The notes beneath the pieces were generated by a model that was not told where the DNA came from, did no database searches, and saw only the letters and a list, made by a program, of their open reading frames with translations. Positions 6,183 to 53,896 of a DNA stretch of 64,000 nt are shown here, one piece after another (the first letter of the stretch is position 1; every line of letters begins with the position of its first letter). Both the position numbers and the translations under genes were made by a program. Origin of the DNA: an uncultured Erysipelotrichaceae bacterium (GTDB lineage Bacteria; Bacillota_I; Bacilli_A; Erysipelotrichales; Erysipelotrichaceae); the NCBI GenBank assembly GCA_900314905.1, contig OMXA01000002.1:1-64000 (forward strand), given 5' to 3'.

Positions 6183-6183
6183 C

Positions 6184-7085: not shown

Positions 7086-7859
7086 ATGCACAGAAAATAT
7101 TTCTTCTTTGATATTGACGGGACTCTGACAGACGATGCGACGCATAAGATCGTGCCGAGCGCGGAGCGCACGCTGCATGCCCTGGAAAGAAATGGACATT
7201 TTGTCTCCATTGCGACGGGAAGAGCGCATTATAAAGCCCAGGGGTTCGCGGATGCGATCGGGATCCGGAACCTGGTATGCAATGGCGGCGAATGTCTGGT
7301 TCTGAATGGAAAAGTCATTGAGAACCGGCCGCTGGATCATGAGATCGCGCTGTTTCTGATCCGTCATGCCGAAGCGGCAGGTCTTGGCTATCTGCTGATG
7401 TGCGATGACAGCGACCGGGTGTTCATGAAGGATACCCGTTTTCTCGAGCAGGCAGGAAGACGGACGGAACTGACGACGTATGTGCTGGATCCGGATCTTG
7501 ATCCAGAACAGATTCCGTCCATCTTCAAAGTCTATATCGCGATGCGGGAAGATCAGGAAGCAGCGAATCCATGGATCATGAAGCAGGGACATCTGCGCAT
7601 GGGCCCCGGGTATCTGAATTTCCAGCATGATGCCAAGAAAGACGGCATTCTGAGAATGCTGAAAGCAGTCGGCGGAAACGAAGCGGATGTCGTCGTCTTC
7701 GGCGATGCTGTGAATGACCTCGTGATGTTCGATCCGCGCTGGACGAGCATTGCCATGGGGAATGGCATGAGGGAACTGAAAGAGAAAGCCGACTATGTGA
7801 CGGCAGCGAATACGGATGATGGCATTGAGAAAGCATGCAGGAGGTTCGGATGGATCTGA
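7086..7859 (+). CDS. Cof-type HAD phosphatase
   Basis: Starts on the base after the ComB-like stop. Haloacid dehalogenase motif I is DIDGTLTDD (9-17), with nucleophile Asp9 and acid/base Asp11; motif II is SIATGRAHY (near 40), and motif IV FGDAVNDLVMF lies near 200. The long cap between motifs II and III marks the Cof/IIB group, which dephosphorylates sugar phosphates, phosphorylated cofactors or flavin precursors. Length 257 aa is normal. The substrate cannot be told from sequence; the operon suggests joint phosphatase work with its neighbour. Confidence 0.9.
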   Translation: MHRKYFFFDIDGTLTDDATHKIVPSAERTLHALERNGHFVSIATGRAHYKAQGFADAIGIRNLVCNGGECLVLNGKVIENRPLDHEIALFLIRHAEAAGLGYLLMCDDSDRVFMKDTRFLEQAGRRTELTTYVLDPDLDPEQIPSIFKVYIAMREDQEAANPWIMKQGHLRMGPGYLNFQHDAKKDGILRMLKAVGGNEADVVVFGDAVNDLVMFDPRWTSIAMGNGMRELKEKADYVTAANTDDGIEKACRRFGWI

Positions 7860-8242
7860 AAAAGACTGCGAGATGGGAAGCAGCGGTTTTCTTCGTGATG
7901 ATGCTGGTTTCTTCCTGGTCTGAGGCGACGGTTTCTTCAGGAGCTTTTTATGTCTTCGCGCTGATTGCAGCAGGGATTTCATTTCTGGTTTACTTTGCCG
8001 GCATGCATTTTCTGAGGAGGCTTCACGAGAAGGGGACCGGATGGAAACTGGTCCTTTCCGGCGGTCTTGCCGGAGCGCTTGCGGGTCTTCTGATGGCGGC
8101 GGTGTCAGGAAGTCTTGCTGCAGCAGGGGCCTTGATGATGGTGATGTTTCTAAGCGGAATGCTGTTCGGCTTTCTGTACTGGATCGTGAATCTGCAGATT
8201 CTGAAGTATCTGGAGTCCTCGGGGACTTCCTGGAAGGAATGA
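7850..8242 (+). CDS. Polytopic membrane protein of unknown function (130 aa)
   Basis: ATG 7850 is chosen because AGGAGG (7839-7844) sits five bases ahead, inside the end of the HAD gene; a start at 7835 has no such site. Four hydrophobic segments cover most of the protein, with a glycine/alanine-rich stretch GGLAGALAGLLMAA in the third. It resembles small four-helix membrane proteins of unknown role. Coupled to the phosphatase genes upstream. Confidence 0.75.
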   Translation: MDLKKTARWEAAVFFVMMLVSSWSEATVSSGAFYVFALIAAGISFLVYFAGMHFLRRLHEKGTGWKLVLSGGLAGALAGLLMAAVSGSLAAAGALMMVMFLSGMLFGFLYWIVNLQILKYLESSGTSWKE

Positions 8243-8316
8243 GATATGTGGCTGGATCTTCTATGTTTTGGAATTGCCCTCCTGCTGCATCATGCCGGCG
8301 TATTCTGAAAAAGCGC

Positions 8317-8345
8317 TTGATGACCCGGTTTCTGCGTGATACTAT
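8317..8345 (+). promoter_or_regulatory. Promoter of rplS
   Basis: TTGATG (8317-8322), a 17-base spacer, then TACTAT (8340-8345). It starts a leader of about 85 bases before rplS that contains GCGCAAAAGCGC and other short inverted repeats; autoregulation by L19 is possible but not shown. Confidence 0.55.
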
Positions 8346-8435
8346 ATACAAGCGCAAAAGCGCAGCCACTGTTCCGCTGGCCGCAATGGGACTATGAGCA
8401 GATCGGCGAAAACGTAAGCAGAAGGAGAAACAGAC

Positions 8436-8783
8436 ATGAGACTCGATTTAGTAGACAAGATCACAAAAGATCAGATCCGCAACGACATTCCTGAATTCCG
8501 CCCGGGCGACACGGTCAAGGTATTTGTCCGTATCCGTGAAGGTGAGAAGTCCCGTATTCAGCTGTTTGAAGGGGTTGTCGTAGGCATGCAGAACGGCGGG
8601 ATCGGCGAGACATTCACCGTCCGCAAGATTTCCAACGGCGTCGGTGTTCAGCGTACGTTCCCGAAGAACAGCCCGATCATCGATCATATCGAAGTAGCTC
8701 GTCACGGAAAAGTCCGCAGAGCAAAGCTCACTTACCTCAAGGGACGTTCCGCAAAGAATTCCCGTATCAAGGAAGATCGCTGA
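8436..8783 (+). CDS. rplS: 50S ribosomal protein L19
   Basis: 115 aa, the standard length. Family blocks [22 protein letters not shown] and [23 protein letters not shown] are present; L19 sits at the 30S-50S interface. The C-terminus [18 protein letters not shown] is typical. The start follows AGAAGGAGAAACAGAC. It has its own promoter and terminator, separate from the trmD/rimM genes that often accompany it. Confidence 0.98.
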
Positions 8784-12642: not shown

Positions 12643-13437
12643 ATGAGGAGTGAACGAGAACTGCTGGCGGCGTATGCCGTGCGCTATCAGGGCGACTGGA
12701 AGAAGATTTCAAGGGCAATTGCCAGCAAGGAACCGGTTCCGGTTTATGAAGGGAAGGACCCTTATCTGACGATTGCGGATGAAGAATATCCTTCCTGCCT
12801 GCGCAGGCTGCGGTTTCCGCCCTGGGTCCTGTTCTATGCCGGCAATCCGGAACTGCTGAACGATCCGGCCGTGACCATCATCGGTTCCCGTGACATGCAT
12901 GCCTACGGAAAGCAGATGACAGTGCTTTCTGCTTCGATTCTTGCAGAGCGCTATGTGCTGGTCTCGGGCTTAGCAAAAGGGGTGGATGGAATAGTTCATC
13001 GAACTGCCCTGGCCAGAGGCGGACATACGATCGGGGTCATCGGCTGCGGCATCAATATCTCCTATCCCCGCTGCAATCTGGATCTGTACCGCCGGATGTC
13101 AGAAGATCAGCTGATCCTGAGCGAATATCCCCGTGATACGATGCCGGAAGCCTGGCATTTTCCATGGCGCAACCGGATTCTGGCAGCACTTGGAGAAGCA
13201 GTGGTCGTCACGGAAGCTAAGCGGACCAGCGGCACGATGCATACCGTCAATGAAGCAATTTCCCTCAGCAGAGAAGTCTGGTGCGTGCCTTATCCCTTTG
13301 GAGCAGTGGAAGGAGAAGGGTGCAACCTGCTGATCTCAGAGGGAGCAAATCTTCTGGTCAATGAAGATTCCTTAAGGGATCTCGCCCATGGCGGCAAGGA
13401 CATGAGGCTTGCAGAGAACTGCGGAAGTGTTGTATAA
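12643..13437 (+). CDS. dprA: DNA-processing protein DprA (native copy)
   Basis: RecA-loading protein for incoming single-stranded DNA. Rossmann blocks: TIIGSRDMHAYGK, VSGLAKGVDGIVHRTAL, GVIGCGINISYP, LILSEYP and FPWRNRILAALGEAVVV-TEAKRTSGT. At 264 aa it lacks the C-terminal winged-helix domain of longer DprA proteins. It sits in the canonical rnhB-dprA-topA order with composition like its neighbours, unlike the fragment at 1-690. The start follows AGGAGGG with a 13-base gap. Confidence 0.93.
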   Translation: MRSERELLAAYAVRYQGDWKKISRAIASKEPVPVYEGKDPYLTIADEEYPSCLRRLRFPPWVLFYAGNPELLNDPAVTIIGSRDMHAYGKQMTVLSASILAERYVLVSGLAKGVDGIVHRTALARGGHTIGVIGCGINISYPRCNLDLYRRMSEDQLILSEYPRDTMPEAWHFPWRNRILAALGEAVVVTEAKRTSGTMHTVNEAISLSREVWCVPYPFGAVEGEGCNLLISEGANLLVNEDSLRDLAHGGKDMRLAENCGSVV

Positions 13438-37959: not shown

Positions 37960-37994
37960 CGTATTCTCCATCCGACTCTACTGGGGTAGATCTT

Positions 37995-40900
37995 ATGAAA
38001 ACAAGAAAAAAGAAACGCAATCACATGGCATCAGAAAGCGGAAACAGACGCTTTTAGGGCGTGCTGCCGCCACTGGTACGATTCTCGGCGCCGCCCTCGC
38101 TGCTCAGGGCAATACGGTATATGCACAGGAAATGGAATCAGAGAGCGCTGCTGACAGCGAGAATGATTACCAGGTAAACGCTCAGGCATCTGAGTCTGAG
38201 GCGGAATCCTTAAATCCGGAATCTGAGAATCAGGAACCGACACAATCTGAAGCAGAAACAAAAGAGACCGAGATGGAATCGGTGTATCAGGCAAGTGAAT
38301 CTGCTCAGCAGTCTGATTCCATCTCTGCAGCTTCCGCTGCTTCACAATCAGAGTCTGCAGCAATCATGCGTTCTGAACAGACAGAAAGAATTCACTCTGC
38401 CTCAGAATCCGCATCTGAATCAGATGCAGCGCAGAATCAGTCTCTCAAGGAAGCTTCCACCTCAGTTCTGGAGAAATCTTCAGAAGAAACAGAAACTCTG
38501 AATTCAGAGAGTGCTTCTGCCTCACTGAGCAGATCTCTCAGCCTTGCTGAAGGCTCCATAGCAGCCAGCACTTCTCATAGTCTGAGCACTGATGCATCCG
38601 CCTATGGAAAGAGTGAGCAGGCCGTCAGCCTGTCTCTGAGCCAGAGCAATTCCATCAGCACCAGTGCTTTGCTCTCTGCAGAAGCCAGCCAGGCATCCGG
38701 ACGGAACTCTGAAATCGGTTCTCAGAGCAATGCTGCTTCAGAATCAGCCTCATTCTCTGCATCCGCAGCAGTTTCTGCTTCTGAGTCTGCAGCTGCTTCT
38801 CTGAATCAGGAAAATACCTCACTGAACCAGCTTTCCGGATCCGTTTCTGCATCCGGAAGCACTTCAGCTTCAGAATCACAGTCTTCTTCTCTGAGCGTGA
38901 AGCATTCTGAGAGTGCTCATGCTTCTTCTGCTTCCCTCAGCAGCTTTGAAAGTGCTGCATTTGCTTCTCAAAGCAGAAGTACTTCTGCCTCTGTCCGTGC
39001 TGCCTCAGAATCTGAAAGCAGCTCATTATCCGAGAGCAGCTCTGCAGAGAATGCAAGCCAGTCCTCTAGCAGAAGCACTTCTCTTTCTGAACAATCCAGC
39101 GAATCCCTGAGCCAGAGTCAGTCTCTGAACGATGCAAGTGAAGCAGCGAAAGCTTCCCTCAGCACTTCTGCTTCTATGGCAGGATCTGTTTCTGACTCTG
39201 CCTCGGCAATTCTTTCGGAACGCACTTCCAGCAGTGCCAGCGAATCTGCGTCCGCTTCCGGATCATCTTCCGGATCCGCCAGTGCATCTGATGCAGCAGT
39301 TTCTGCGTTCGAATCTGAAAGCAGAAGCACTTCAGCGAGTGTCCGTTCGTCTGAAGATCAGCTGAGCACTTCTCTGAGTCTCAGCGCAGCTTCTGAAAGT
39401 GAATCTGCTTCCCTAAGCGGCAGCAAAGCAGCCAGCCTCAGTGCATCCGAGAGCACTTCGCTTTTCAAGAGCGGTTCTGAAAGCGCAAGTGCTGCAAGTG
39501 CAAGCACTGCAGCTTCTGATTCGATCAGCACCTCCATCTCTGAACACGAATCTTCTCTCAGTGCTTCCGCAAGTGATTCTGTGTCCGTTTCAGAGTCCTC
39601 AAGGAACGCAGCTTCTCTCTCTGCTTCCGTTTCAGATAGCAATGCAGAGGTTTCTGATTCCGCTTCTGCTTCCCTTTCTGAATCTGATTCCGTTTCAGCT
39701 TCGGAGCGCAATTCCATCAGTGTCATTGAAGCATCAGAGTCTGCTTCTGCTTATCAGAGCGAGATGGCCAGCCTGTCTGAAGCAATCAGCACAGCAGATT
39801 CTGCATTTGCCTCGGCTTCGATTCAGTTTTCACAGTCAAATCTGCAGGACCAGTATCTGGAAGATCTGATTGCCAGAATTGAGAGGGCCCGGGCTGAACT
39901 GAAATCCATTCAGCAGGGATTCATCACAAGAGGAGAGAGCTACGTTTATGGAGATTACTGGACAAAAGGCAATGAACTTGCCAATCTCCTCGTCGAATAC
40001 CGGTTCTATCAGGAAAGTCAGGTTACCACAATCTTCGAAGGAAAATGGGAACAGAATTCCGGTGCGGGTAACTATGTCAAAGTAACCTACATGGGCAATG
40101 ATCAGAGAGAACATACTGCATACTTTGACTACATCACGGTGGATAAGAATGGAAATCCGCTTTTCGATACATTGAATCAGGAAGGCTCTAAGGGCTCAAA
40201 CGATCCGAACGTGATCGGAGGAATTCTGGTTCTTCAGAAAACACTCGGAAAAGGAGGACAGTTCATTCCTTCTTCCCGCAGCGACGTAGCGAATTTCGGA
40301 CAAAAAGGATATGCCTATTTCTCGGAACAGGACTTTGACAAGGGAGTAGATGAATATCACAGCAATCGCAGTACGGTCACCTCAGCCTCCCAGAGCCTGA
40401 GCCAGCTGGTTTCTGAATCCGTGAAGAATTCCGGATCCGTTTCCTCCAGCCTCAGCAGCAGTCAGTCTCTCAGCAATCATCTTTCCTCATCCAGCGAATC
40501 TGAATCGAAGAAACAGTCTGAATCTGCTTCCTCTCGTTCCCTGTCTGAACAGGAATCAGGAAGCAACAGCAGATCAGCCTCTGAATCTGCCTCTGTTTCC
40601 TTTAAGGAATCCCAGTCAGCAAGTGCTTCGATCAGCGAGAGCAGGTCTGAGGAAGCGTCGGTTTCTGTATCGGAAAGCACGATGGAGTCTCAGAAGTCTG
40701 CATCAGCGTATGATTCAGAATCAGCTTCTGCATCAGCGTCTTCCAGCCAGAGCGCCTCCGCAAGCCAGTCTTCCGCTTCCGTCTCTGGTTCTGTCTCCGC
40801 CTCAGCTAGTGCTTCCGGATCCGTCAGCAAGTCAGCAAGTACCGACTCTGTTCAGAACAGCGAGTTCCTCAGCACCAGTGACAGAGAATCTGAAAGCAGC

Positions 40901-43822
40901 AGTGCGTCTGCGAGTACCTCTGCCTCTGAGGCGGCAAGCAGGTCTTCCAGCCAATCCTTCTCTGAAAGCATCCGTGATTCAGAGAGTGCCAGCAGCAAGC
41001 AGAGTGAATCTGTCCTTCATAGTGAAAGCACATCGGCATCTGTTTCTGAAGTGCAGAGTGTGTCTTTCTCTGAAGAGGGAATCAGCAGTCAGAGCCAGTC
41101 AGAGGCAGATCGCAAATCCGCCAGCACAAGCACGTCAGGAAGCATTTCTGAATCGGAAAGCCTGAATGCGTCTGAATCCGGTTCTGCTTCTGAAAGCAAG
41201 CATGCCTCTGAAAGTGAATTCACTTCTCAGAAGGAATCAGAATCCTCCAGCATTGCAGCATCAGAGTCAGAAAACATCTCAGAGGCAAATATCAGTTCTG
41301 AAAGCAGGTCACTTTCCGAATCAAAGAGCATCTCAGACGAGAAATCTGCTTCTGCAAGCAATGCGTCTGAAGCAAGCCGTTCAGAGAGCCTTTCGCTTTC
41401 TGAATTGGAAAGTGCTTCGCTGGAAATCAGCGCTTCGGATAGTACTGAGAAATCTGCATCCATCAGCGATTCCGGAAGCACCAGTATTTCCGCAAGCGAA
41501 AGTGATTCTCTTTCGAAAAGCATTTCTGTCAGCAGATCCGCTTCACAAAGCGCTGACACCTCTACCTCAAAGAGTGAATCCCTGAGCATCAGTGCCAGCA
41601 CTTCCGCAAGTGCTTCCGCTTCCATCAGCACCAGCACTTCACTCAGTGCAGACCAATCCGAGAGCCTCAGCACTTCTGCCAGCAATAGCAATTCTGTCAG
41701 CAGAAAAGAATCCGAGAGTACAAGCCGGCAGGCAAGTGAATCGGAATCAGATTCCAGAAGAGAATCTGCAAGCATATCTGCATCTTTCAGTGATAGCATC
41801 AGCAGCAGTTTAAGCTCTGAAATTGAACATTCCGCTTCTATCAGTACTTCTGAAAGCATCAGTGCTTCCCTCAGCAAGAGTGCTTCTCTTAGCCTGAGTA
41901 CTTCTGAGAGTGTGAGCAGATCGCTCAGTATCAGCGGAAGTATTTCCTCAAGCACATCAGCAAGCCAGAGCACCAGTGATTCTAAGAGTACCAGCACCTC
42001 TGATAGTCTCAGTGTTTCTTCAAGCACAAGCACATCTGCCTTGAAGAGCGTCAGTGCGTCAGAATCCGAGAGTGCCAGCACTTCTGATTCCACGAGCGAG
42101 TCTGTAAGCACATCAGAATCTGAAAGCGAAAGTGAGTCTGAAAGCGAAAGCACCTCCGAATCAGAGAGTGAGTCTGAAAGCACATCAGAATCTGAAAGCG
42201 AAAGTGAGTCTGAGAGCGAAAGCACCTCCGAATCAGAGAGCGAGTCTGAAAGCACATCAGAATCTGAAAGCGAAAGTGAGTCTGAGAGCGTGAGCACCTC
42301 CGAATCAGAGAGTGAGTCTGTAAGCACATCAGAATCTGAAAGCGAAAGTACGTCAGAATTTGAAAGTGAAAGTGAGTCTGAGAGCGAAAGCACCTCCGAA
42401 TCAGTAAGTGAGTCTGCAAGCACATCAGGATCTGAGAGTGTGAGCAGATCGCTCAGTATCAGCGGAAGTATTTCCTCAAGCACATCAGCAAGTCAGAGCA
42501 CCAGTGATTCTAAGAGTGCCAGCACCTCTGATAGTCTCAGTGTTTCTTCAAGCAGCAGCACATCAGAATTCGAAAGCGAAAGTAGTTCGGAATCAGAAAG
42601 TGAAAGTGAATCTGAGAGTGTTATTGAATCTGAAAGCGTAAGCACTTCGGAATCCGAGAGTATCAGCGAATTTGTTAGCACCTCAGAGAGTGAGTCTGAT
42701 AGCGAAAGTAGTTCGGAATCAGAAAGTGAGAGTGAGTCTGAGAGCGTTATTGAATCTGAAAGCGTAAGCAGTTCGGAATCCGAGAGCATCAGCGAATCTG
42801 TTAGCACCTCAGAGAGTGAGGCTGATAGCGAAAGCACATCAGAATTCGAAAGCGAAAGTGAGTCTGAAAGCACTTCAGAATCAGAGAGTGAGTCTTCAAG
42901 CACGTCAGGATCTGAGAGCGTGAGTAGTTCGGAATCAGAAAGTGAAAGTGAATCAGAGAGTGTCATTGAATCTGAGAGCGTGTCGGGATCTGAAAGCGTA
43001 AGCAGTTCGGAATCTCGTAGTGCATCCTCAAGGTCTGAGAGCAATAGTGTTTCTGCTTCGGAATCTATGAAGTCTGCAAGTGAGAGTACTTCCTCCTCTA
43101 TGGCGGAGAGCGTTAGCACATCAGAGTCTGAAAGGGAGCTCGAGAGCACTTCGAAATCAGCAAGCGAAATTGAATCTGCAAGTATTTCAGAAAGTGATAG
43201 TGTTAGTACTTCTGAATCTGATCGGACATCAGCAGGTTCAGCGAGTGATAGTGTCTCTGCATCTGAATCTGCAAGCATCAGCAATTCAGCTTCAGAGTCT
43301 GCTGCAAATGAGAACTTCATTGGTTCTGAAGTCAGCCAGACTGGTTCAGCAGGAAGCGAAATTGCTGGTTCTATGACCGCTGAGGTTCAGCCGGTGTCAT
43401 TGAGTCTGACTGCTCCGGATGCTGGCGGTTCAGAGGTGAACACGGTATCTGCGCATCCGGCGGAAGTTCGTGCGTCAGAGACAGGCAGGATTGAGAGGGA
43501 AGGATCTGTCTCGACTTCAGAAAGCAGAAGTCAGAGAGGAAGCTCGAGTGACAGTGCAAGTGCAGCAGCAAGCGAAAGCAAGTCTGCTTCTGCTTCGACG
43601 GCTGCTTCAGAGTCGGAATCCGAGAACAGCAACAGTATTTCGAACAGTATCCGGATGTCCGCGGAAGATTCGTTCAGCGAGATGTCGAGCAATCATATGA
43701 CGGAGCGCAGTTTCAGCGGTAATGAACTCAGCGCTTCGCGGACGGCTTCTGCCGCTGGAACGGTGTCATCGGAACTGGAAGAGCTGAATGGCGAAGTTCT
43801 GCTTCAGGTGAGAAAGCATTAA
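37995..43822 (+). CDS. Serine-rich-repeat glycoprotein adhesin, start frameshifted
   Basis: Cargo of the accessory Sec system. ATG 37995 follows GGGG at a good distance, but its frame stops at 38055. The -1 frame encodes a signal peptide (basic GIRKRKQTLLGRAAAT, hydrophobic core, cleavage after VYA near 38122) and continues to 43822; the frames meet at A AAA AAG (38006-38012). That frame has no ATG, GTG or TTG between its preceding stop (37931) and ATG 38132, which lies after the signal peptide. After an N-terminal serine-rich region comes a non-repeat segment (about 39835-40380, likely ligand-binding) and then a long second Ser-Xaa region dominated by SESES and SASTS repeats. No LPXTG or C-terminal membrane helix is visible. 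About 1940 residues if frameshifted. Confidence 0.85.
38006..38012 (+). other. A AAA AAG slippery heptamer / homopolymeric tract
   Basis: Six A and a G, read in the ATG-37995 frame as A AAA AAG, the same heptamer as E. coli dnaX. A -1 slip here enters the signal-peptide frame of the SRR adhesin; insertion of one A would do the same at the DNA level. A weak stem (GCGG...CCGC with inner ACGC/GCGT) lies about 25 bases downstream. Confidence 0.6.
41903..42037 (+). repeat. 135-bp direct repeat, copy 1, inside SRR region
   Basis: Nearly identical to 42431-42565 (a handful of base differences), offset by 528 bases. Both encode the same run of serine-rich units beginning SESVSRSLSISGS. This points to a recent duplication or recombination within the gene. 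Confidence 0.85.
42110..42425 (+). repeat. Tandem SE/STSE repeat array
   Basis: Short units of the type TCAGAATCTGAAAGCGAAAG and TCTGAGAGCGAAAGCACC recur in near-tandem, encoding SESESESTSESES. Copy number changes here would alter stalk length, and assemblies of this part may be unreliable. Confidence 0.8.
42431..42565 (+). repeat. 135-bp direct repeat, copy 2, inside SRR region
   Basis: Second copy of the segment at 41903-42037. Confidence 0.85.
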
Positions 43823-43868: not shown

Positions 43869-43918
43869 ATTATGCGTATCTGAAGTTTTCAGATTGAATG
43901 GAAGGGTTATTATTCTGG

Positions 43919-45118
43919 ATGAAGATACAGAAAACACATGAGCTGCCTAGCCGGATCCTGTTTACGATTCTGGTGGCTGCGGTCTATCTGTTCTGCCGAA
44001 GTATTGTTCTGTATGGCATCGATGCGGAATCAGTCAATGGCGGTGCAGCGGATGTGCAGGCGTTGCTTTCGATGATGGTGAGCGGGGATCGCTATCGGGT
44101 GACGGTGATGGCGCTTGGCATCATGCCTTATATCAATGCGTCGCTTCTGGTGCAGATTCTCTTTGCGTTCCGCAGTGCTGCTTCAAGAGCAAAGATCTCG
44201 AAGATGGAGAGCGATCGCTGGATGCGGACGGCAGCGATCCTGTTCAGCATCGTGATGGCCATCATGAGGTCTTATGAACTGACTTATCGGAGTGATATCG
44301 GACCGTTATGGTCTCTCAGACTGATCGTGATTCTGGAGATGATTGCCGGCGCGGTAGGAATCAGCTTTCTCTGCTTTGAGAATGAGAAACATGGAGTCGG
44401 TGCTTCCATGCCGATCATCCTGATCAATATTCTGACGTCGCTTGCGCAGAATATGAATGCAAATCATTTCTTTGCGTTTCGGCCGATGGTCTGGCTCTGC
44501 GTCATCGTGATTGCCGGGACCATTCTGATGGAGAACTCCATCATCCGGATTCCGCTGCAGCGGGTGTCGATTCACAATGTGCACGCGGATCAGAACTATC
44601 TTGCGTACAAGCGGGCCCCGATGGGAATCATGCCGGTGATGTTTGCGGCTTCTGCGTTTTTCGTTCCGTATTATCTCGTGAAAATGCTTGCGTATTTCTT
44701 CCCGGACAATGCATCGCTGAGTGTGGCAAGTGAGAATCTGGTGCTGACAAAGCCTCTTGGTGTGATTGTCTATCTGATTCTGATTGTGGTTCTTTCCGTG
44801 GTTTTCTCGATGCTGATGCTGAATCCGAAGGAAACAGCACGTCAGCTGCAGCGCAATGGCGACAGTATCATCGGAATGGCAGCAGGAAAGAAGACGAAGA
44901 ATTATCTGACTGGCCTTGTGCTGAGGTGGAGCCTGATCAGCGGGCTTCTGCAGGCGTTATGCATGGCAGTTTCGATGGTGCTTTCGTTGAGAGGACAGAT
45001 TCCTGCTGCATTGGCGATGGTTCCGTCTTCCGTGATGATTCTTGTCAGCATCGTGTGCAGCCTTGTTCATGAAATCGGGACGTATTACCGGTATGACGCA
45101 TATCGGTTCTTCCTGTAA
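43919..45118 (+). CDS. secY2: Accessory Sec translocon channel SecY2
   Basis: Ten-helix SecY homologue dedicated to SRR glycoprotein export. SecY-like features: LALGIMPYINASLLVQIL (plug and second helix region), a truncated set of cytosolic loops and a late AYKRAPMGIMPVMFAASAF segment. About 399 aa, the usual SecY2 size. Start 43919 is chosen because GGAAGGG lies ahead; 43898, seven codons upstream, is possible but lacks a site. First gene of the export cluster. Confidence 0.9.
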   Translation: MKIQKTHELPSRILFTILVAAVYLFCRSIVLYGIDAESVNGGAADVQALLSMMVSGDRYRVTVMALGIMPYINASLLVQILFAFRSAASRAKISKMESDRWMRTAAILFSIVMAIMRSYELTYRSDIGPLWSLRLIVILEMIAGAVGISFLCFENEKHGVGASMPIILINILTSLAQNMNANHFFAFRPMVWLCVIVIAGTILMENSIIRIPLQRVSIHNVHADQNYLAYKRAPMGIMPVMFAASAFFVPYYLVKMLAYFFPDNASLSVASENLVLTKPLGVIVYLILIVVLSVVFSMLMLNPKETARQLQRNGDSIIGMAAGKKTKNYLTGLVLRWSLISGLLQALCMAVSMVLSLRGQIPAALAMVPSSVMILVSIVCSLVHEIGTYYRYDAYRFFL

Positions 45119-45136: not shown

Positions 45137-46741
45137 ATGCAGTATTTCATTCCGGCGTGGTATCAGGAAAATGACTGGAGAGAAAACGAGCAGGTCTGGT
45201 ACCGGGCAAGGACGGTGACGGAGTTTGATGATACCGTCAAGCAGGTTCAGCTGTTTTTCCGCCGCAAGGTTGCTCCGCTTAAGATCCTGCTTCTGAGCTT
45301 TTCTCCGAATTTCCGTCATTTCCTGCATCGGCAGGGTGTCTATCATGTGCCGTACTGGTCATGCTTTGATGCGATGCAGGCGATTTCAGGAAGAGCCATG
45401 CATACGTTTTCGTTCCATGATCTTTCGTGGCCGGAAGATGTGGAGTTTGTCTATTCTCCCTTTGCGGTGCTGGTCATGCGGAATCATCAGAAATATGCCG
45501 AGATCAGCTTTGCGGAAGATGGCAACATGTTCCGGGTGGATCTGTTTCAGAATGGACTTCTGACCGCCAGCAATCATTATGATGACCGCGGTTTTGTCTC
45601 GCTGCAGACTGCTTATGAAAACGGGGCTCCTGTCTTTGAACGCTATTTTGATGAGCAGGGGGTATGGAAGTTTGCAAGATATCTGAAGGATGGCCATGTC
45701 GTCATCAATCCGGAGAGGGCGTTCTTCCTGAATGGAGCAGAAAGAGTCCCTTATGCAAAAGGACGGTATCAGAATCTTGGTGAAGTCATCGCAGAAGTGC
45801 TGAGCTGCTTTCTGAAGGACACCGATCCTTCCGATGTGTTTGCCATTGCGATGCATCCGCTGCACTCACAGGTGCTGAATGCGGTTCTGAAGGATCGGCA
45901 TAAGATTCTTTCGTTTTTCGAGCGGCGGATGGAGGAACACGCACTCACAGAAGCAGAACAGGAACTTCTGGATTCGGCTGGCTGCATTGTGGCCGATAAG
46001 GAAAGCACTGCTGAAGCGGTGAAGAAGCATCTGCATGCAAGTACGCCGATCCGGGTCATCACGCCATATGAAGCCAGAGTGGAGTTCGGCATCAGCCAGC
46101 ATCTGCATGTGCAGAATATTCTCGCGGCCTGCGATCATCTGTCAGAAGAGCAGTTCAATCAGATGATCGTGCTGCTTGCTGGATATATCCTGAACCGGAA
46201 TCATCGGGCAAGAGTCTGCCTGTTTACGAGATCTTCGAAATATGAGGAAAAGATCAGCTTGCTGAAACGGGCTCAGAATGCACTTAGCCTAGCGGGCCTG
46301 GATCCGGAAATGGCAGGCAGCGAAGAAGGGGTTTCGGAGAATTCCGTATCTGATGATCCATTTGCCAGAGTCTTCTCGGTTGCTCAGTGCGTGGATGAGA
46401 TGCATGTGAGCAGAACGCTCAGGGAACAGCGGGCAGTATGCGATCTTTCGCCGCTGCCGGATCAGTTCCTGGAGATTTCTGCCATGAGCATGGGCATTCC
46501 GCAGATCACGAGGCAGAAGACGGAATACATCGAGGATGGAAAGAACGGAAAGATCCTGAAGGATGTCTTGGAACTGCCAGAGGCAGCGGATTATTATCTT
46601 GGCAGTGTGGAACATTTCAATGAAGCTCAGATTGCGTCTTATGAGCTTGGCAGCAGGTTCACGGCACCGGAGCTTGAGAAGGCATGGAAGGAGGTGATCG
46701 AGATTGATCAGCATTCAGGCACTGCAGCTGGGCGGAAATGA
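45137..46741 (+). CDS. asp1: Accessory Sec system protein Asp1
   Basis: Starts MQYFIPAWYQENDWRE, close to the conserved start of Asp1 (GT-B-like fold, scaffold of the Asp1-2-3 complex that binds GlcNAc-modified adhesin). 534 aa is typical. RBS GGAAAGGAGAG. It overlaps asp2 by 38 bases. Open throughout. Confidence 0.9.
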   Translation: MQYFIPAWYQENDWRENEQVWYRARTVTEFDDTVKQVQLFFRRKVAPLKILLLSFSPNFRHFLHRQGVYHVPYWSCFDAMQAISGRAMHTFSFHDLSWPEDVEFVYSPFAVLVMRNHQKYAEISFAEDGNMFRVDLFQNGLLTASNHYDDRGFVSLQTAYENGAPVFERYFDEQGVWKFARYLKDGHVVINPERAFFLNGAERVPYAKGRYQNLGEVIAEVLSCFLKDTDPSDVFAIAMHPLHSQVLNAVLKDRHKILSFFERRMEEHALTEAEQELLDSAGCIVADKESTAEAVKKHLHASTPIRVITPYEARVEFGISQHLHVQNILAACDHLSEEQFNQMIVLLAGYILNRNHRARVCLFTRSSKYEEKISLLKRAQNALSLAGLDPEMAGSEEGVSENSVSDDPFARVFSVAQCVDEMHVSRTLREQRAVCDLSPLPDQFLEISAMSMGIPQITRQKTEYIEDGKNGKILKDVLELPEAADYYLGSVEHFNEAQIASYELGSRFTAPELEKAWKEVIEIDQHSGTAAGRK

Positions 46742-48212
46742 TCTTTCCGAAGAGATGGTGCTCAGCGAGGATGTGAAATGGAATTATGAGCCCGGACTGA
46801 ACGCTTCTGATCCGGAGTATGAGATCGCCTTCATTCTGAGAGAACTCAGCGAAGAGGAAGCGGAGTATCTGAACCGGCATGTGCGGGCCAATTGTCTGTT
46901 TTTCCTGGAGGGACTGAGCTTGAATGCCGCAATGGAGCGGCTGAAGCAGTCCAGGATCGCAAGGACCATCAGCCAGGCAGAACTGCGGCCGTTTCTTTCC
47001 GATCAGCTGAAGAACTATGAGTCCAGGTCTTATGGCGAGAAGTTTGATCCGCACATGATGTCGGTTTCTCCGTATTTCCATGGCTTCGTTTCCTGGAACG
47101 GATATTCGGAAGCGGTCCTTGAGGGGACGTTCGGAGATACGATGCACCAGGCGGTATTCTGGCGAGGTAATATTCCAGTGGAACATGGCCAGGCGATTGA
47201 TTTCTGGCTGGAGTATGAAAAGGATGACAGTGTCTCGATCGAACTGCAGATCACCCAGTTCCCCAGCGGCAGCGTCTCAGCAATTCAGAATACCTGGACG
47301 TTTTCTGAACAGGAACTCAGACAGCCTGTGACCATTGATAATGAGAAGCGATCCGGTCCGGTCTTTGTTTCTCTGAATGCATGCGGGCATGGCAAGCTGA
47401 AGATCAGAGCGCTTCATGACCGCTATTCCAGAAGAGGAAATGGTGCCTTTCTTCCAGGAGGAAAGCGCCTGGTCACTTCTGCTGGAGAAGAAGTATTCAC
47501 GTACTTTGATCCGGGGGATCTGAAACCGCCGCTTTGTGTGTATTTCTCCGGATACAAGACCATGGAAGGCTTTGAGGGATACCGGATGATGAGAAGGATG
47601 GGATGCCCGTTTCTGTTGGTCAGCGAATCGCGGCTGGAAGGCGGAGCGTTTTATCTTGGGGATGAAGAATATGAATCGCTGATTCTCGAAGCGATCCGCA
47701 AGGCCTGCAGCACCCTTGGATTCCAGGAGAATCAGGTCGTGCTTTCCGGTCTTTCGATGGGCACGTTCGGTGCTCTGTATTATGCCACCCGCATTGCGGC
47801 TGGCAATGTGATTGTCGGCAAGCCGCTCGTAAGTCTTGGCAATGTGGCTGAAAATGAGCGCCTGCTCAGGCCGGGATTGTTTGCGACTTCTCTCGATGTG
47901 CTCTGGAAGTCAGAGGGAAGTCTCAGCCATGATGCAGCAGAAGCGCTCAATGCGCGTTTCTGGGATCGGTTTGACCATACTGACTGGTCGGGCCGGACGA
48001 TCTATGCGGCTTACATGATTGAGGATGACTATGATCAGGATGCGTATCAGAAGCTGCTGGCTCATGTGAAGGGCGCTTCGGCAAGGATGATCTGCAAAGG
48101 CCTGCATGGCCGTCATAACGATGATACGCATGGCATTGTCAGCTGGTTTGTCTGGCAGTATCAGCGCGTGCTGCGGAAAGAATTCGGAAGAGAGCAGAAA
48201 CAGGATGAATGA
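46704..48212 (+). CDS. asp2: Accessory Sec system protein Asp2 (O-acetyltransferase)
   Basis: Alpha/beta-hydrolase-like enzyme that O-acetylates GlcNAc on SRR adhesins while helping their export. The nucleophile is Ser351 in LSGLSMGTFGALY; the C-terminal GLHGRHNDDTHG supplies the His. 502 aa. The start is TTG 46704: a perfect AAGGAGGTGA (46688-46697) sits six bases ahead, and no ATG in frame is nearby. Confidence 0.92.
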   Translation: MISIQALQLGGNDLSEEMVLSEDVKWNYEPGLNASDPEYEIAFILRELSEEEAEYLNRHVRANCLFFLEGLSLNAAMERLKQSRIARTISQAELRPFLSDQLKNYESRSYGEKFDPHMMSVSPYFHGFVSWNGYSEAVLEGTFGDTMHQAVFWRGNIPVEHGQAIDFWLEYEKDDSVSIELQITQFPSGSVSAIQNTWTFSEQELRQPVTIDNEKRSGPVFVSLNACGHGKLKIRALHDRYSRRGNGAFLPGGKRLVTSAGEEVFTYFDPGDLKPPLCVYFSGYKTMEGFEGYRMMRRMGCPFLLVSESRLEGGAFYLGDEEYESLILEAIRKACSTLGFQENQVVLSGLSMGTFGALYYATRIAAGNVIVGKPLVSLGNVAENERLLRPGLFATSLDVLWKSEGSLSHDAAEALNARFWDRFDHTDWSGRTIYAAYMIEDDYDQDAYQKLLAHVKGASARMICKGLHGRHNDDTHGIVSWFVWQYQRVLRKEFGREQKQDE

Positions 48213-48651
48213 ACTTGGAAACAGCTGGAAAGTAACCTGGAATGAATATGCGGGGGATACGTACCTGTATGGATCAGAAATCAGATTTCATGCTCCGGAG
48301 GATGTGGAATTCCGCAATGCGCTGATGCCGGCCGGGACGGTGATCAAAGTCTGGTATTCGATGGTCAATTATCAGGCGGGAAGAATCGAGCCTTCGCTGC
48401 CGATCATCGATGGAGAAGGAAGCTATCATGTTTCCCTGAAGATTGACACGGATGTGCCGCAGGGAATCTTTCTGCGCTTTGTATTTCATGGCAAAAATGG
48501 GGAGGAAGCAGGGAGTATGGTCATGGACCAGCCGGAAATGGATCTGAAGTGTCCGCTGAAGGCATACAGCTATGAGGCTCAGCTGATCTGTGCCGGGGCG
48601 CATGCCTTTCACTTCCATTCCTTCACGATTACGGAGATCTCTAGACCATGA
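48205..48651 (+). CDS. asp3: Accessory Sec system protein Asp3
   Basis: Small beta-sandwich-type partner of Asp1 and Asp2. 148 aa from ATG 48205, which overlaps the asp2 stop by eight bases and follows AGAAACAGG. Features shared with Asp3: an N-terminal WKVTWNEYAGDTYLYGSEI and the hydrophobic FHFHSFTITEI end. The assignment rests largely on order asp1-asp2-asp3-secA2. The frame opens earlier at 48106, inside asp2, but the overlap start is more likely. Confidence 0.85.
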   Translation: MNELGNSWKVTWNEYAGDTYLYGSEIRFHAPEDVEFRNALMPAGTVIKVWYSMVNYQAGRIEPSLPIIDGEGSYHVSLKIDTDVPQGIFLRFVFHGKNGEEAGSMVMDQPEMDLKCPLKAYSYEAQLICAGAHAFHFHSFTITEISRP

Positions 48652-50975
48652 GCGATCGAAAGCTGAAACAGATCACTGAAGCGGTCAGAGCGAAGGCAGA
48701 GATGATTTCTCGTCTTAGCGACCAGGAGCTTCGGATGGAGACGAAGAAACTGAAGCAGGAGCTTGCGGAAGGAAAGAGCCTGGATGAGATTCTTCCGGAG
48801 GCCTATGCGGCAATTGCGGAAGCAGATCGCAGAATCCTTGGAATCTAACCGTTTGAGGAGCAGATCTATGGAGCGGCCGCATTGCATCTGGGATGCCTGG
48901 CCGAGATGAATACCGGCGAGGGGAAGACGCTGACGGCGACGATGCCGTTATATCTTCATGCCCTGACGGGAAAAAGCACGATTCTGGTCACGGCGAATGA
49001 ATACCTGGCTTATCGGGATGCCTAGCAGCTGAGAGGAGTATTCTCATTTATGGGACTGACTGAACGGGCAGGGGTCACCAGGACTCCGGATCGTTCTTTC
49101 ACCAATGCTGAGAAACGGGTGAACTATGCGGCAGATATTCTGTATACGACGCACTGCGTGCTGGCGTTTGATTATCTGCTGAACAATCTCGTGATGCGCT
49201 CGGAAGACCGGTTTCTGCGTCCGTTTGAATTCATCCTGATTGATGAAGCGGATTCCGTTCTGCTGGATGGAGCGCAGATGCCGCTGGTAATCTCCGGCTC
49301 GCCGCGGGTGCAGTCAGATCTTTATGAAAGTGCGGATTTCTTTGTCTCGACGCTGAAAGAAGGAAGAGACTATGAGACCGAAGAGAAGTCGGTCTGGCTC
49401 ACAGAGGCAGGCACTGCATATGCAGAACGGTTCTTCGGGATCTCCGATCTCTTTGCGCATGAAAATTTCGAGCTGAACCGGCATATTCAGCTGGCATTGA
49501 GGGCAAGAGTGCTGTTCCAGATTCAGAAGGACTACATGATTTCGGATTCCGGAGAGATTGTCCTGCTCGATAACAGCACCGGCAGAAGCCTGCCGGGAAT
49601 GAAGCTGAGAGGGGGTGTTCATCAGGCCATTGAGCAGAAAGAACATCTTCGTCTGTCAAAGGAGCAGCGTTCTATCGCTTCAATCACCTATCAGAATCTG
49701 TTCCTGATGTTTCCGCAGATGTGCGGCATGAGCGGCACGTTCCGGGATGCGAGAAAAGAGCTGCGGGAAGTGTATCACAAGCGGGTGGTCATCGTTCCGC
49801 CTCATAAGAAACTGCAGCGCATCGACTATGCGGACAGGTATTATGCGACTGCCGAAGAACAATATGAAGCAGCGCTGAAGGAAACGCTGCATCATCATGC
49901 CACAGGTCAGCCGGTGCTGATTGTCACGGCAACGATCCAGGATACGCAGATCTTCTCGCGGATGCTGGTAGACAAGCATGTGGCGCACAGCGTTCTGAAT
50001 GCGAGCAATGCGTACTGGGAAGCCGAGATCATCGCTGCGGCCGGCAGAAAGAATGCAGTGACGGTATCGACCGGCATGGCTGGAAGAGGAACCGATATCA
50101 AGCTTGAAGATGGCGTGCAGGAGCTTGGCGGTCTGGCGGTGATCGGCATCGGCCGCATGGAGAATACCCGTCTGGAACGGCAGGCCAGAGGAAGAGCAGG
50201 CCGTCAGGGCGATCCTGGCAGCAGCCAGTTCTTCGTATCGCTGGAAGATGAGATTGTGACCGAGATGTTTCCGGATCAGACCGAGGCAGTCCTCTCCGGA
50301 AAGAAATCCATTTCTCATGCCCGATTGAAGCGATTGATTCAGAAGGCACAGCGGACCATGGAAGAACAGAGTGTCGCGACTCGTGAGCAGGCAGTCCGGT
50401 ATGATCGGGTTCTGAGAAGACAGCGGGAAATCCTGTATGATGCCAGAAACCGGCTGCTGGATGGCGAAGCGGTGCCCGAAGATCTTCTGAAGAACCTCGT
50501 GCATGAGAATCTGAAGCGGTTTGCAAGCAGCCATCGCTCCATCAGTGAGAGCGAGCTAAGCCGCTATGTGCTGGATCATCTTTCGTATGAAGTGGATCCG
50601 GACGTTCTTTCATTCTCGGAAAAAGGGAATTCTGCTGCGCTTCTGAACCGGCTGGAAATCTATGCAGAGGAGCTTCTGAAGCAGAAAGAGGCATCATTTG
50701 CGCATGCTGAGGAGCTGCAGGAGTTCGTGCGGGAATGCATGCTGAAGGCACTGGACGAAGGATGGGTCGAGGAAGTTGACTATCTGCAGCAGCTGCAGTA
50801 TGCGATCGCTTCGCGCGGGACTGCTCAGAGAAATCCGATCTTCGAGTACAGCCGGGAAGCGTATCGTTCCTTTGCAGACATGGAACAGACGATGATGGAG
50901 AATATTATCCGGAATTTCTTCCTGGCAGAGCTCTTTCAGGGAGCGGATGGGAAGCAGAGAATTCTGTTTCCGTAA
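48648..50975 (+). pseudogene. secA2: Accessory Sec ATPase SecA2, two nonsense codons
   Basis: Motor ATPase for SRR export. One continuous frame from ATG 48648 (overlapping asp3) is cut by TAA 48846-48848 ([13 protein letters not shown]) and TAG 49023-49025 (LAYRDA*QLRG). Homology to SecA runs across both without a gap. Walker A GEGKT (48915-48929) lies between the stops; the DEAD-like LIDEADSVL, GRGTDIKL and RGRAGRQGDPG motifs lie after. Restart at ATG 49050 would give 641 aa lacking Walker A, so no active ATPase is expected. Confidence 0.88.
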
Positions 50976-50986
50976 GGAGAAGCGGC

Positions 50987-52484
50987 ATGATCTACAATTT
51001 CAATCTCGGCATCGGCTGGGCTTCCAGCGGCGTCGAATATGCGCAGCTCTATAGGGCAAGGATGTTCCGGGTGCTGAAAGAACCGGCAAAGTTCGTCTTC
51101 ACCGATATGTTTCCGCAGGAGAACCTGGAGCATTTCACGAAGCATATCGGCTTTGCGGATGAGGAAGTGATCTGGCTTTATACGTATTTCACCGATTTCA
51201 GAATTTCCCCGGTGACGTATACGCTGTCACAGTTTGAAGCTTCCCTTGCGGATCAGAAGTACTCTTTCCAGAGAACCGGAAAGACCGGGAGGCTGAAGTT
51301 TCAGGATCCCGGTCACTGGTGCACGGTTTATTTCACTGATGAGAAACAGGATCTCGTTCATCGGGCGGAGTATGTTTCCCGCGGGGCTCTGATCCGCAAG
51401 GACTACTTCACGTATGGAAGAATCTATTCGGAATATTATGCGCCGCTGAATGGAAGTGCCCATCTGTATCTGAGAAGATTTTTCAATGAAGATGGGTCCA
51501 TTGCCTATGAGGAACTGATCGGCGGGAAGAATTCCATGTATCGCTTTGCAGATCATATCTTCGATTCGAAAGAAGACTTTGTCGGCTATTTCGTGAAATG
51601 CCTCCATCTTTCCAGGCACGATCTCGTGATCGTGGACCGCACGACCGGCATCGGCCAGGCAATCTTCGAGAATGCCGGCGATGCAAGAGTCTGCGTCGTC
51701 GTGCATGCGGACCATTACAGCCTGTCCGGCACGGATCAGGAGCATATTCTCTGGAACAACTATTATGAGTATCCGTTTGATCTGTGGCGGCATATCAGTT
51801 TCTTCATCGCCTCCACACAAGCCCAGAAGCAGAAGATGGCAGAGCAGTTTGAACACTATATCGGAACGATACCGGAGATTGAGGTGATCCCGGTCGGTTC
51901 CCTCGACCGGCTGAGAGGTGCCGGAAAAGCCGAGAAAGCCGTATTCGATCGTGACTGCTTCGCGGCTTGCCAGCGAGAAACATCTGGACTGGGTCATTGA
52001 AGCATGCATTCTTGCCAGAGCAGAGGTTCCGGAACTGACGCTGGATATCTGCGGGGAAGGCGGAGAGCATCAGCGCCTGGCGGAACTGATCGAGACCAGG
52101 AATGCGTCCGGATATATTCATCTGCTCGGACAGCAGGAGATGAACGATCTTTATCAGAACTATGAGCTGTATCTGTCCGGCTCCACAAGCGAAGGATTCG
52201 GACTCAGTCTTATGGAAGCGGTCGGGAGCGGTCTCGCGATGATTGGGTTTGAGGTTCCTTATGGAAATCCGTCCTTCATCCGCAATGGGAAGAACGGAAC
52301 GCTGATTCCGGTTTCGGAATCGATGAGTGAGAAAGAGCGGGTAAATGCCCTGGCAAAGGTGGTCGTGCAGTATTTCAGGACGGCAGATCGCAAGGCGTAC
52401 TCAGAGTGCTCTTATGAGATTGCTTCGGCGTATCTGACAGAAAACGTGGTGCAGAAATGGAAAAACGTGATACAGGCAGAATAG
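50987..52484 (+). pseudogene. gtfA: SRR glycosyltransferase GtfA, frameshifted
   Basis: GtfA with GtfB forms the O-GlcNAc transferase that initiates glycosylation of SRR adhesins. The first part (50987 to about 51912, MIYNFNLGIGWASSGVEYAQ...EVIPVGSLDRLR) and the second (from about 51915, PEKPRKPYSIVTASRLASEK...STSEGFGLSLMEA) are collinear with one GT4 protein but lie in different frames; the shift falls in CTGAGAGGTG (51911-51920). The catalytic second GT-B half is therefore not made in frame. Total length fits an intact family member of about 500 aa. Confidence 0.88.
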
Positions 52485-53896
52485 GTCAGGAAGGAATTCT
52501 GCTTCTTGATCATTATGATGAAGCCGCAAAGATGCTGAAGGAATCGTTCAGGATGGCAGGCTTTTCCGGGCCGGTGCTTGTGCTTTCTGAAGAAGCGTAC
52601 TTGCCGGATGATGTCGGTTCGCTGTATGGCATGTATTGCCAGGAGGAGGAACCATGTGCATTTCCTGGAGCGGTTCATTCGCCCAGAGAGAAGAGCGAGG
52701 CAGAGATCCGGGAATACCAGCTGCGTCATGCTGGCTGGCGGCCTGGCATGAGCCGGTATTTCAATCAGATCGAGCTTCCGGATTACTGGGAGATCAGTGC
52801 GGATGGCATGTCGGCAAGGGTCTATGACCGCAATCACCTGCGGGCAAGGATCTTCTATGCAAAGAACGGAAAAAGCCGGATTGTCAGCGATGCTGACTGG
52901 CTGGATGAGAATGGAACCGTGCGGTTCACGGATCACTATGATCTCCACGGGCTGCTCTATGCAAGAACTTCCTTCAATGAGAAAGGCGAACGTTTCTGCT
53001 GCTCCTGGATGGATCAGGAGGGAAGAGAACGGGTTGTCGAGAACTACGTGACTGGCGATATTCTGGTCACCAGGAATGGCACTGTCAGCCTGTTTCATAA
53101 CCGGACTGAACTTGCCGTGCAGCTGATCAGGGAACTTGGCTATGAAGGACAGCGGATCTTCTACAATTCGCTGTCGACGCCGCTGTTTGTCAGCGAGCGC
53201 CTGTCTTCTTCAGACGCGGACAACGTCCTCTTCTGGCAAGAAGGCAAGCGGCCTGATATTCCCGGAAACATGCAGATGATCTTAGCAGGGGCTTCCCATA
53301 CGAACCGCATCCTCGTGCAGAATCAGGAGAGCTTCAGAAAGCTCTGCTCGCTCGGGGCTTCTCTTGACTATGTGCGTCCATTCGGCTTCGTTTATCCCTT
53401 TGATCACGCTCACAGGAACCGGTCTGAGGTGCTGATCTGCACGAACTCGGATCAGATTGCTGAGCTGGAGGCGCTGGTGAAGGGATTGCCCCAGATGAAC
53501 TTCATGATTGCGGCAGTTACGGAGATGTCTTCGAAGCTGCTTTCCTTCGGTTCCTGTCCGAATGTGCGTCTGTATCCGGCTGCTTCCAGCCAGATTCTGA
53601 GTCAGCTCTTTGCAGAGTGCGGCTGGTACTTCGATATCAATTATGGCAATGAGATCGTTTCGGCTGTGAAGCATGCGTTTCTCAATGAGATGCTGATCAC
53701 GGGATTCCGATCCACGCTCCATCGGCCGCAATACGTTGCCGAGAACCTGGTGGCAGAGGATGCAGAGGAGTTGATCAGGACTGTAAAGAAGCTGATGCAG
53801 TCAGAAGCCTTGCAGGAAGAATCCCTGCAGCTGCAGAAACAATCGGCGATGTCAGAACCGATCTCTGCTTATCAGCAATTATTCCGGAATGAATGA
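52457..53896 (+). CDS. gtfB: SRR glycosylation partner GtfB
   Basis: Co-activator of GtfA that binds the SRR acceptor. 479 aa, inactive GT-B-like architecture; blocks such as QIELPDYWEISADGM, DWLDENG-TVRFTDHYDLHG and YFDINYGNEIVSAV are typical of GtfB. It starts inside the end of gtfA (28-base overlap). The frame is intact. Last gene of the locus, before a terminator. Confidence 0.88.
   Translation: MEKRDTGRIGQEGILLLDHYDEAAKMLKESFRMAGFSGPVLVLSEEAYLPDDVGSLYGMYCQEEEPCAFPGAVHSPREKSEAEIREYQLRHAGWRPGMSRYFNQIELPDYWEISADGMSARVYDRNHLRARIFYAKNGKSRIVSDADWLDENGTVRFTDHYDLHGLLYARTSFNEKGERFCCSWMDQEGRERVVENYVTGDILVTRNGTVSLFHNRTELAVQLIRELGYEGQRIFYNSLSTPLFVSERLSSSDADNVLFWQEGKRPDIPGNMQMILAGASHTNRILVQNQESFRKLCSLGASLDYVRPFGFVYPFDHAHRNRSEVLICTNSDQIAELEALVKGLPQMNFMIAAVTEMSSKLLSFGSCPNVRLYPAASSQILSQLFAECGWYFDINYGNEIVSAVKHAFLNEMLITGFRSTLHRPQYVAENLVAEDAEELIRTVKKLMQSEALQEESLQLQKQSAMSEPISAYQQLFRNE

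What the first reader, a model, noticed from the sequence alone, without database searches (positions are those of the whole stretch)
37995..38140. SRR adhesin start and signal peptide in different frames, joined exactly at A AAA AAG
Seen: ATG 37995 with a GGGG site opens a 20-codon frame, while a clear signal peptide (basic region, hydrophobic core, cleavage after VYA) lies in the -1 frame and leads into the 5.7-kb adhesin frame. That frame has no ATG, GTG or TTG ahead of the signal peptide. The two overlap at 38006-38012, read as A AAA AAG, the dnaX-type -1 slippery heptamer. A -1 shift there yields MKTRKKETQSHGIRKRKQ followed by the signal core. Alternatives are an A6/A7 phase-variable tract, transcriptional slippage, a fixed null mutation or a sequencing error.
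Basis: partly seen in the sequence, partly recalled or inferred. Interest (0 to 1): 0.85.

Follow-up and report, generated by a model that had tools for sequence, protein, structure and literature searches.

The report
Broken adhesin gene in decaying cluster
The start of a large surface-adhesin gene is out of frame with the rest, most likely because this adhesin and parts of its private export machinery are recently broken genes rather than because the cell shifts frame on purpose.

Summary
The split is real: ATG 37995 opens a 20-codon frame (TAG 38055), while a signal peptide and a 5.8-kb serine-rich-repeat (SRR) adhesin lie in the -1 frame, without ATG/GTG/TTG before the signal peptide. A AAA AAG (38006-38012) is there and in phase, but both frames are open over 37995-38054, so they are not joined 'exactly' at it. 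The same island has three more lesions: two in-frame stops in secA2 (48846, 49023) with the Walker A motif between them, and a frame change in gtfA near 51913-51921. All 4 related adhesins with a held N-terminus have an in-frame ATG; 2 of these 4 also carry A AAA AAG in frame without needing a shift. RNA after the heptamer folds no better than shuffles. Best reading: a recently inactivated SRR/accessory-Sec island, present in 1 of 71 genus genomes. Assembly error, phase variation or recoding are not excluded without reads or peptides. Pseudo-SRRPs are in print (PMC6973325, PMC4667477). In passing: an unannotated, highly conserved C-terminal block.

The parts
37995..38057 (+). 20-codon frame from ATG 37995 to TAG 38055: leader start of the adhesin, out of frame with the signal peptide
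38006..38012 (+). A AAA AAG in zero-frame phase (A6 run 38006-38011)
38012..43822 (+). SRR adhesin frame: signal peptide (VYA end), Ser-rich region 1, non-repeat region, Ser-rich region 2, C-terminus without LPXTG; frame open from after TGA 37931, first ATG 38132
39836..40375 (+). non-repeat (putative binding) region of the adhesin; 43% identical to the matching region of Olsenella porci L010
   Evidence: no NCBIfam match and only a chance-level Pfam match (E 0.083)
43541..43660 (+). 40-residue C-terminal block, 80-100% identical in 11 of 11 related adhesin C-termini
43898..45118 (+). secY2, uninterrupted
45137..46741 (+). asp1, uninterrupted
46704..48212 (+). asp2, uninterrupted
48106..48651 (+). 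asp3, uninterrupted
48645..50975 (+). secA2, broken: in-frame TAA 48846 and TAG 49023; Walker A (GEGKT) lies between the two stops; the long ORF 49050-50975 lacks it
50987..52484 (+). gtfA, broken: 5' part (model positions 3-315 of 500) and 3' part 51918-52484 (313-498 of 500) in different frames, change near 51913-51921
52457..53896 (+). gtfB, uninterrupted

Best explanation
An SRR adhesin plus accessory Sec (aSec) island that this species, alone among the 71 held genomes of its genus, carries, and that has recently been inactivated. A small indel between ATG 37995 and the signal peptide put the start and the rest of the adhesin in different frames. Two nonsense mutations in secA2 and a frameshift in gtfA interrupt the export motor and the first glycosyltransferase. 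Shown: the frame split, the other three lesions, relatives with uninterrupted genes. Inferred: that the adhesin is not exported, that the lesions are fixed in the population, and that they are young (little extra divergence, repeats still open).
For: Three further lesions in two more genes of the same pathway. Relatives: in-frame ATG in 4 of 4 adhesins with a held N-terminus (L010, L013, two in L018); no internal secA2 stop in 10 of 10 loci, though L018 lacks the middle of the gene; gtfA in one frame in 9 of 9 loci that show it (no gtfA or gtfB match in L017). The distance from ATG 37995 to the hydrophobic core is about that of the four related leaders (roughly 50-60 nt, hand count), so ATG 37995 is probably the ancestral start. 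Lesions cluster: 4 in 15,937 coding nt of the island, none recognised in 44,844 nt of the other 41 window ORFs (P = 0.005, post hoc; P = 0.077 against only 13 ORFs with a full-length family match). asp1 in 1 of 71 genus genomes and 7 of 316 of the order, this genome included. All aSec components are required for SRR export in streptococci (PMC7948813, abstract). Similar damage in the clade: one adhesin of L018 appears split by a single in-frame stop (5326-6762 / 6766-8496).
Against: The adhesin frame has no stop in 1,936 codons although 723 single substitutions would make one (secA2: 281); with only two nonsense events, the chance that neither falls in the adhesin is about 0.4 (hand calculation). 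secY2, asp1-3 and gtfB are open, and the C-terminal block equals that of Olsenella at protein level. The broken genes are hardly more diverged than the same genes of relatives (secA2 main piece 74.8% to L010, L010-L011 75.5%; gtfA 3' part is lower, 66.3% against 77.7%, but not relative to the outgroup L013), so relaxed selection is not shown by rate. Only 33 of the 41 other window ORFs were given to a family search, and partial matches among them (for example 6291-7085 and 12643-13437) were not judged, so lesions outside the island may be missed. Two other SecA-like proteins exist in the genome, so loss of secA2 need not end export. No reads, transcripts or peptides were available.
Confidence: 0.73

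Rival explanations
1. Assembly or base-calling error, or a consensus of mixed strains, in a draft genome makes an intact gene look broken at this site, perhaps at the other sites too.
For: Draft assembly of 76 contigs, 94.6% complete, 3.8% contamination. A short A-run is a typical place for an indel error (general knowledge). Uninterrupted genes in relatives.
Against: Four lesions of two kinds (two in-frame stops, two frame changes) in three genes of one pathway and none recognised in the other window ORFs searched. No run of six or more lies at the gtfA junction or the secA2 stops.
Confidence: 0.13
2. Phase variation: the A-run at the start of the gene changes length by slippage and switches the adhesin on and off; the assembled genome is in the off state.
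For: An A6 run lies between start and signal peptide, and A-runs of up to 7 occur in related leaders that are in frame. Adhesins switched by slippage in repeat tracts are described in other bacteria (titles and abstract starts in the listing).
Against: A6 is short, and 13 other runs of six or more of one base (A, T or G) occur in the window. The secA2 stops are not reversible by slippage, so switching the adhesin back would not restore its dedicated motor. The tract is not conserved: longest A-runs in the 4 related leaders are 3, 7, 5 and 6.
Confidence: 0.08
3. Programmed -1 ribosomal frameshifting or transcriptional slippage at A AAA AAG joins start and adhesin on purpose and limits export to a fraction of the product.
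For: Heptamer in the right phase at a usable place; A AAA AAG is a known slippery sequence (PMC3711429, passages).
Against: No conserved shift: 4 of 4 related adhesins start in frame. No significant structure (z -1.27, -0.12, 0.37, 0.07) and, by eye, no Shine-Dalgarno-like stimulator just upstream. The GeneTack table asks for a cluster of five or more genes with a conserved site, and the same paper names A-runs longer than 7 for transcriptional slippage (PMC3711429, passages). It does not account for secA2 and gtfA.
Confidence: 0.04
4. Translation of the adhesin frame starts at a non-canonical codon (for example ATC 38030), giving a short normal signal peptide.
For: ATC 38030 lies directly before a basic stretch and the hydrophobic core.
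Against: ATC is a very poor start (general knowledge), with no Shine-Dalgarno sequence seen by eye in the 20 bases before it; relatives have ATG at about the place of ATG 37995.
Confidence: 0.02

Closest known systems
Pseudo-SRRPs and incomplete aSec clusters of gut lactobacilli and streptococci (PMC6973325, passages; PMC4667477, passages: in L. [quoted passage not shown]
   Same: SRR adhesin gene broken beside aSec genes; clusters vary between strains and hosts
   Different: Here the break lies in the signal-peptide leader, and secA2 and gtfA are broken too; the review passages list Lactobacillales, and I could not name the window's species
SRR/aSec islands of Olsenella porci (L010), Pseudoramibacter porci (L013) and Clostridiales, Lachnospiraceae and other MAGs (L011, L012, L014-L018)
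   Same: Asp1 55-67% identical, linked secY2, asp1, asp2, secA2, same C-terminal block and no LPXTG in the last 100 residues; same kind of signal peptide where held (L010, L013, L018)
   Different: Adhesin start in frame where held (4 of 4); no internal secA2 stop in any, though L018 lacks part of secA2 and L017 shows no gtfA or gtfB
dnaX -1 programmed frameshift
   Same: A AAA AAG in phase
   Different: No stimulator found, no conservation of the shift, no known second product

Membership tests
SRR adhesin (SRRP) | Signal peptide, two Ser-rich regions around a non-repeat region | tested here: met
   in the -1 frame; signal peptide hits TIGR04224 ser_adhes_Nterm only weakly (E 0.055, 13.5 bits, cut-off 25)
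SRR adhesin (SRRP) | Linked aSec genes | tested here: met
   secY2, asp1-3, secA2, gtfA, gtfB follow; two of them broken
SRR adhesin (SRRP) | LPXTG cell-wall anchor | tested here: not met
   none in the last 100 residues of the window adhesin or of 11 related C-termini; LPXTG-less SRRPs are in print (PMC6973325)
SRR adhesin (SRRP) | Glycosylated and exported | not testable with these tools
   needs protein data
Inactivated SRRP/aSec cluster (pseudogenes) | Inactivating lesions in more than one gene of the cluster | tested here: met
Inactivated SRRP/aSec cluster (pseudogenes) | Uninterrupted relatives exist | tested here: met
Inactivated SRRP/aSec cluster (pseudogenes) | Faster divergence of the broken genes | tested here: inconclusive
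   no clear acceleration
Inactivated SRRP/aSec cluster (pseudogenes) | No functional product | not testable with these tools
   needs reads, transcripts, peptides
Programmed -1 frameshift (dnaX type) | Slippery heptamer in zero-frame phase | tested here: met
Programmed -1 frameshift (dnaX type) | Upstream Shine-Dalgarno-like and downstream hairpin stimulators | tested here: not met
   no fold beyond shuffles in 4 stretches, by eye: only GGGG of the start site, 19 nt before the heptamer
Programmed -1 frameshift (dnaX type) | Shift site conserved in relatives | tested here: not met
   0 of 4 related adhesins need a shift
Phase-variable homopolymer gene | Tract length varies in the population | not testable with these tools
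   one genome per species, no reads
Phase-variable homopolymer gene | Long or conserved tract at the start of the gene | tested here: not met
   A6; longest A-runs in 4 related leaders 3, 7, 5, 6

The most novel reading that the evidence does not exclude
The A-run in the leader is a switch (slippage in replication, transcription or translation) that decides whether a 20-residue peptide or an export-ready SRR adhesin is made, and export uses one of the two other SecA-like proteins because the island's own secA2 is gone.
Probability: 0.04. Interest if true: 0.7.

Novelty: new member of a known kind. Interest (0 to 1): 0.22.

Why it matters
It takes a tempting case of programmed frameshifting off the list and shows that a slippery heptamer in a lysine-rich signal-peptide leader is weak evidence: 2 of 4 in-frame relatives carry it too. 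It adds an SRR/aSec island, patchily distributed and probably recently inactivated in one lineage, to the known cases of adhesin loss. It also points to a shared C-terminal block in LPXTG-less SRR adhesins for which no family was found in Pfam or NCBIfam.

Tried and rejected
A search of relatives with the leader DNA found only the own genome (1 of 61 genomes: own, 36 of the genus, 24 of the order), so the tract could not be compared within the genus. Reassigned stop codons: not pursued, since the two secA2 stops are different codons, TAA and TAG, and the island's other genes read as full families under table 11. Island as a compositional stranger: GC 0.49 (adhesin) and 0.52 (aSec) against 0.52 and 0.53 around it, no signal. 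Synteny: in stretches from five same-genus genomes only the three ABC-transporter ORFs before the island matched, so no empty site was defined. Contigs: 10 loci; 7 of them hold no adhesin N-terminus (six cut by the contig start, no Ser-rich ORF found in L019) and were dropped from the leader comparison. The tblastn of the signal-peptide piece matched L010 and L013 but not L018 at E <= 1; likeness to L018 rests on the MAFFT alignment. In one search a stretch further upstream was meant as a control for the C-terminal end motif and turned out to be as conserved or more so (7-16 of 16 against 7-11 of 16); that led to the block, which was therefore chosen after the fact. The window's species was not identified.

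Full report
What is there. ATG 37995, preceded by GGGG at 37983-37986, opens a frame of 20 codons ending at TAG 38055. The -1 frame is open from after TGA 37931 to TAA 43820 and holds a signal peptide ending in VYA and an SRR protein; its only ATG, GTG or TTG between 37934 and 38134 is ATG 38132, past the signal peptide. A AAA AAG at 38006-38012 is in zero-frame phase. The two frames are open together over 37995-38054, so nothing in the frames themselves points to the heptamer as the junction.

The surroundings. Downstream lie secY2, asp1, asp2, asp3, secA2, gtfA and gtfB, the gene set of an accessory Sec (aSec) export system. Two of these are broken. secA2 is read in one frame from 48648 but has TAA at 48846 and TAG at 49023; the Walker A motif GEGKT lies in the 58-codon piece between them, and the long ORF 49050-50975 lacks it. 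gtfA matches its model in two pieces, positions 3-315 and 313-498 of 500, in different frames with the change near 51913-51921. secY2, asp1, asp2, asp3 and gtfB are uninterrupted.

Relatives. Asp1 occurs in 1 of 71 genomes of the genus (this one; 1 of 42 among the more complete) and at E <= 0.001 in 7 of 316 of the order, 6 of them over the curated cut-off, this genome included. A scan of genome contigs with Asp1 gave 10 loci, 46-67% identical, among them Olsenella porci (L010) and Pseudoramibacter porci (L013). Four adhesins in three of these loci have a held N-terminus (L010, L013, two in L018). In 4 of 4 an ATG is in frame with a signal peptide of the same kind; by tblastn the window's signal-peptide piece matches L010 at 56% (E 4e-8) and L013 at 55% (E 5e-4), and not L018 at E <= 1. 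The distance from ATG to core is about alike (roughly 50-60 nt; hand count). secA2 has no internal stop in 10 of 10 loci, though L018 lacks its middle part; gtfA lies in one frame in 9 of 9 loci that show it, and L017 shows neither gtfA nor gtfB. In L018 one adhesin appears split by an in-frame stop, so damage in this clade is not unique to the window.

Is the heptamer informative? In-frame A AAA AAG occurs once in 17,862 codon positions of 48 window ORFs (the adhesin not among them), in trmFO, which matches its family over nearly its full length in the zero frame. But 2 of the 4 related leaders also contain it in frame and need no shift: lysine-rich leaders make it. The stretch after the heptamer folds no better than shuffles (z -1.27 for 70 nt, -0.12 for 100 nt; two stretches across the start 0.37 and 0.07). 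In the 70-nt fold the first pair begins at the 13th base after the heptamer; in the 100-nt fold three long-range pairs begin at the 4th. By the GeneTack table (PMC3711429, passages read) a programmed shift is recognised by a cluster of five or more genes with a conserved site; here none of 4 relatives needs a shift.

Age and error. Four lesions fall in 15,937 coding bases of the island and none was recognised in 44,844 bases of the 41 other window ORFs (P = 0.005; P = 0.077 against only 13 of them, 14,364 bases, whose full-length family match I counted). The test is post hoc; 33 of the 41 were given to a family search and partial matches were not judged. Broken genes are hardly more diverged than those of relatives: secA2 main piece 74.8% to L010 (L010-L011 75.5%); gtfA 3' part 66.3% to L010 (L010-L011 77.7%) but 61.4% to the outgroup L013, against 58.7% and 59.2% for L010 and L011. 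The adhesin frame keeps 1,936 codons without a stop although 723 single changes would make one. So the lesions are probably young. They could in part be errors of a draft assembly (76 contigs), which only reads can tell.

How it most likely works. It probably does not work now. In relatives the leader ATG starts an export-ready adhesin; by analogy with studied systems GtfA and GtfB begin its glycosylation (PMC6973325, passages) and SecA2, SecY2 and Asp proteins export it; all aSec components are needed for SRR export (PMC7948813, abstract). Here the start yields a 20-residue peptide, and motor and first glycosyltransferase are interrupted. Loss of export is inferred, not shown. The genome has two other SecA-like proteins; one exceeds the cut-off of housekeeping SecA models even as a piece, so a residual route cannot be ruled out.

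Comparison with what is known. Pseudo-SRRPs and incomplete aSec clusters are described for gut lactobacilli and streptococci (PMC6973325, passages), and in L. reuteri I5007 the SRRP is a pseudogene (PMC4667477, passages). This case is another of that kind. Of the searches for SRR proteins with pseudogene or frameshift (18 of 18 papers listed), with phase variation (20 of 148 listed) and for frameshifting with signal peptides (18 of 18 listed), no listed title or shown start of an abstract describes a programmed shift in an SRR leader; I read only those listings and the passages named.

A by-product. Near its end the adhesin holds a 40-residue block (43541-43660) that is 80-100% identical in 11 of 11 related C-termini and 100% identical to Olsenella, while 19 of 40 codons differ synonymously; SecY2, Asp1 and Asp2 of the window are 53-68% identical to those of the same loci. 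All 12 C-termini lack LPXTG in the last 100 residues and end in a similar short motif. NCBIfam gave only chance-level Ser-rich hits and Pfam none. The block was picked after seeing the alignment. It may be a retention or recognition domain that stands in for the wall anchor; that is a guess.

Noticed in passing
43541-43819: C-terminal block of the SRR adhesin nearly invariant at protein level across Olsenella, Pseudoramibacter and other loci (80-100% in 11 of 11) with about half of the conserved codons synonymously changed; no LPXTG, shared end motif, no Pfam or NCBIfam family; one copy in the own genome.
   Followed up: partly
39836-40375: 180-residue non-repeat (putative binding) region without a family; the only significant relative among the loci compared is in Olsenella porci L010 (43%).
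   Followed up: partly
L018:5326-8496 and L018:13554-15038: An adhesin of an uncultured Eubacteriaceae MAG appears split by one in-frame stop, and its secA2 lacks an internal stretch.
   Followed up: no
L061, L062 and L063 (G000 contigs C43 and C35): Two further SecA-like proteins in the genome besides the broken secA2; the C43 one exceeds SecA model cut-offs.
   Followed up: partly
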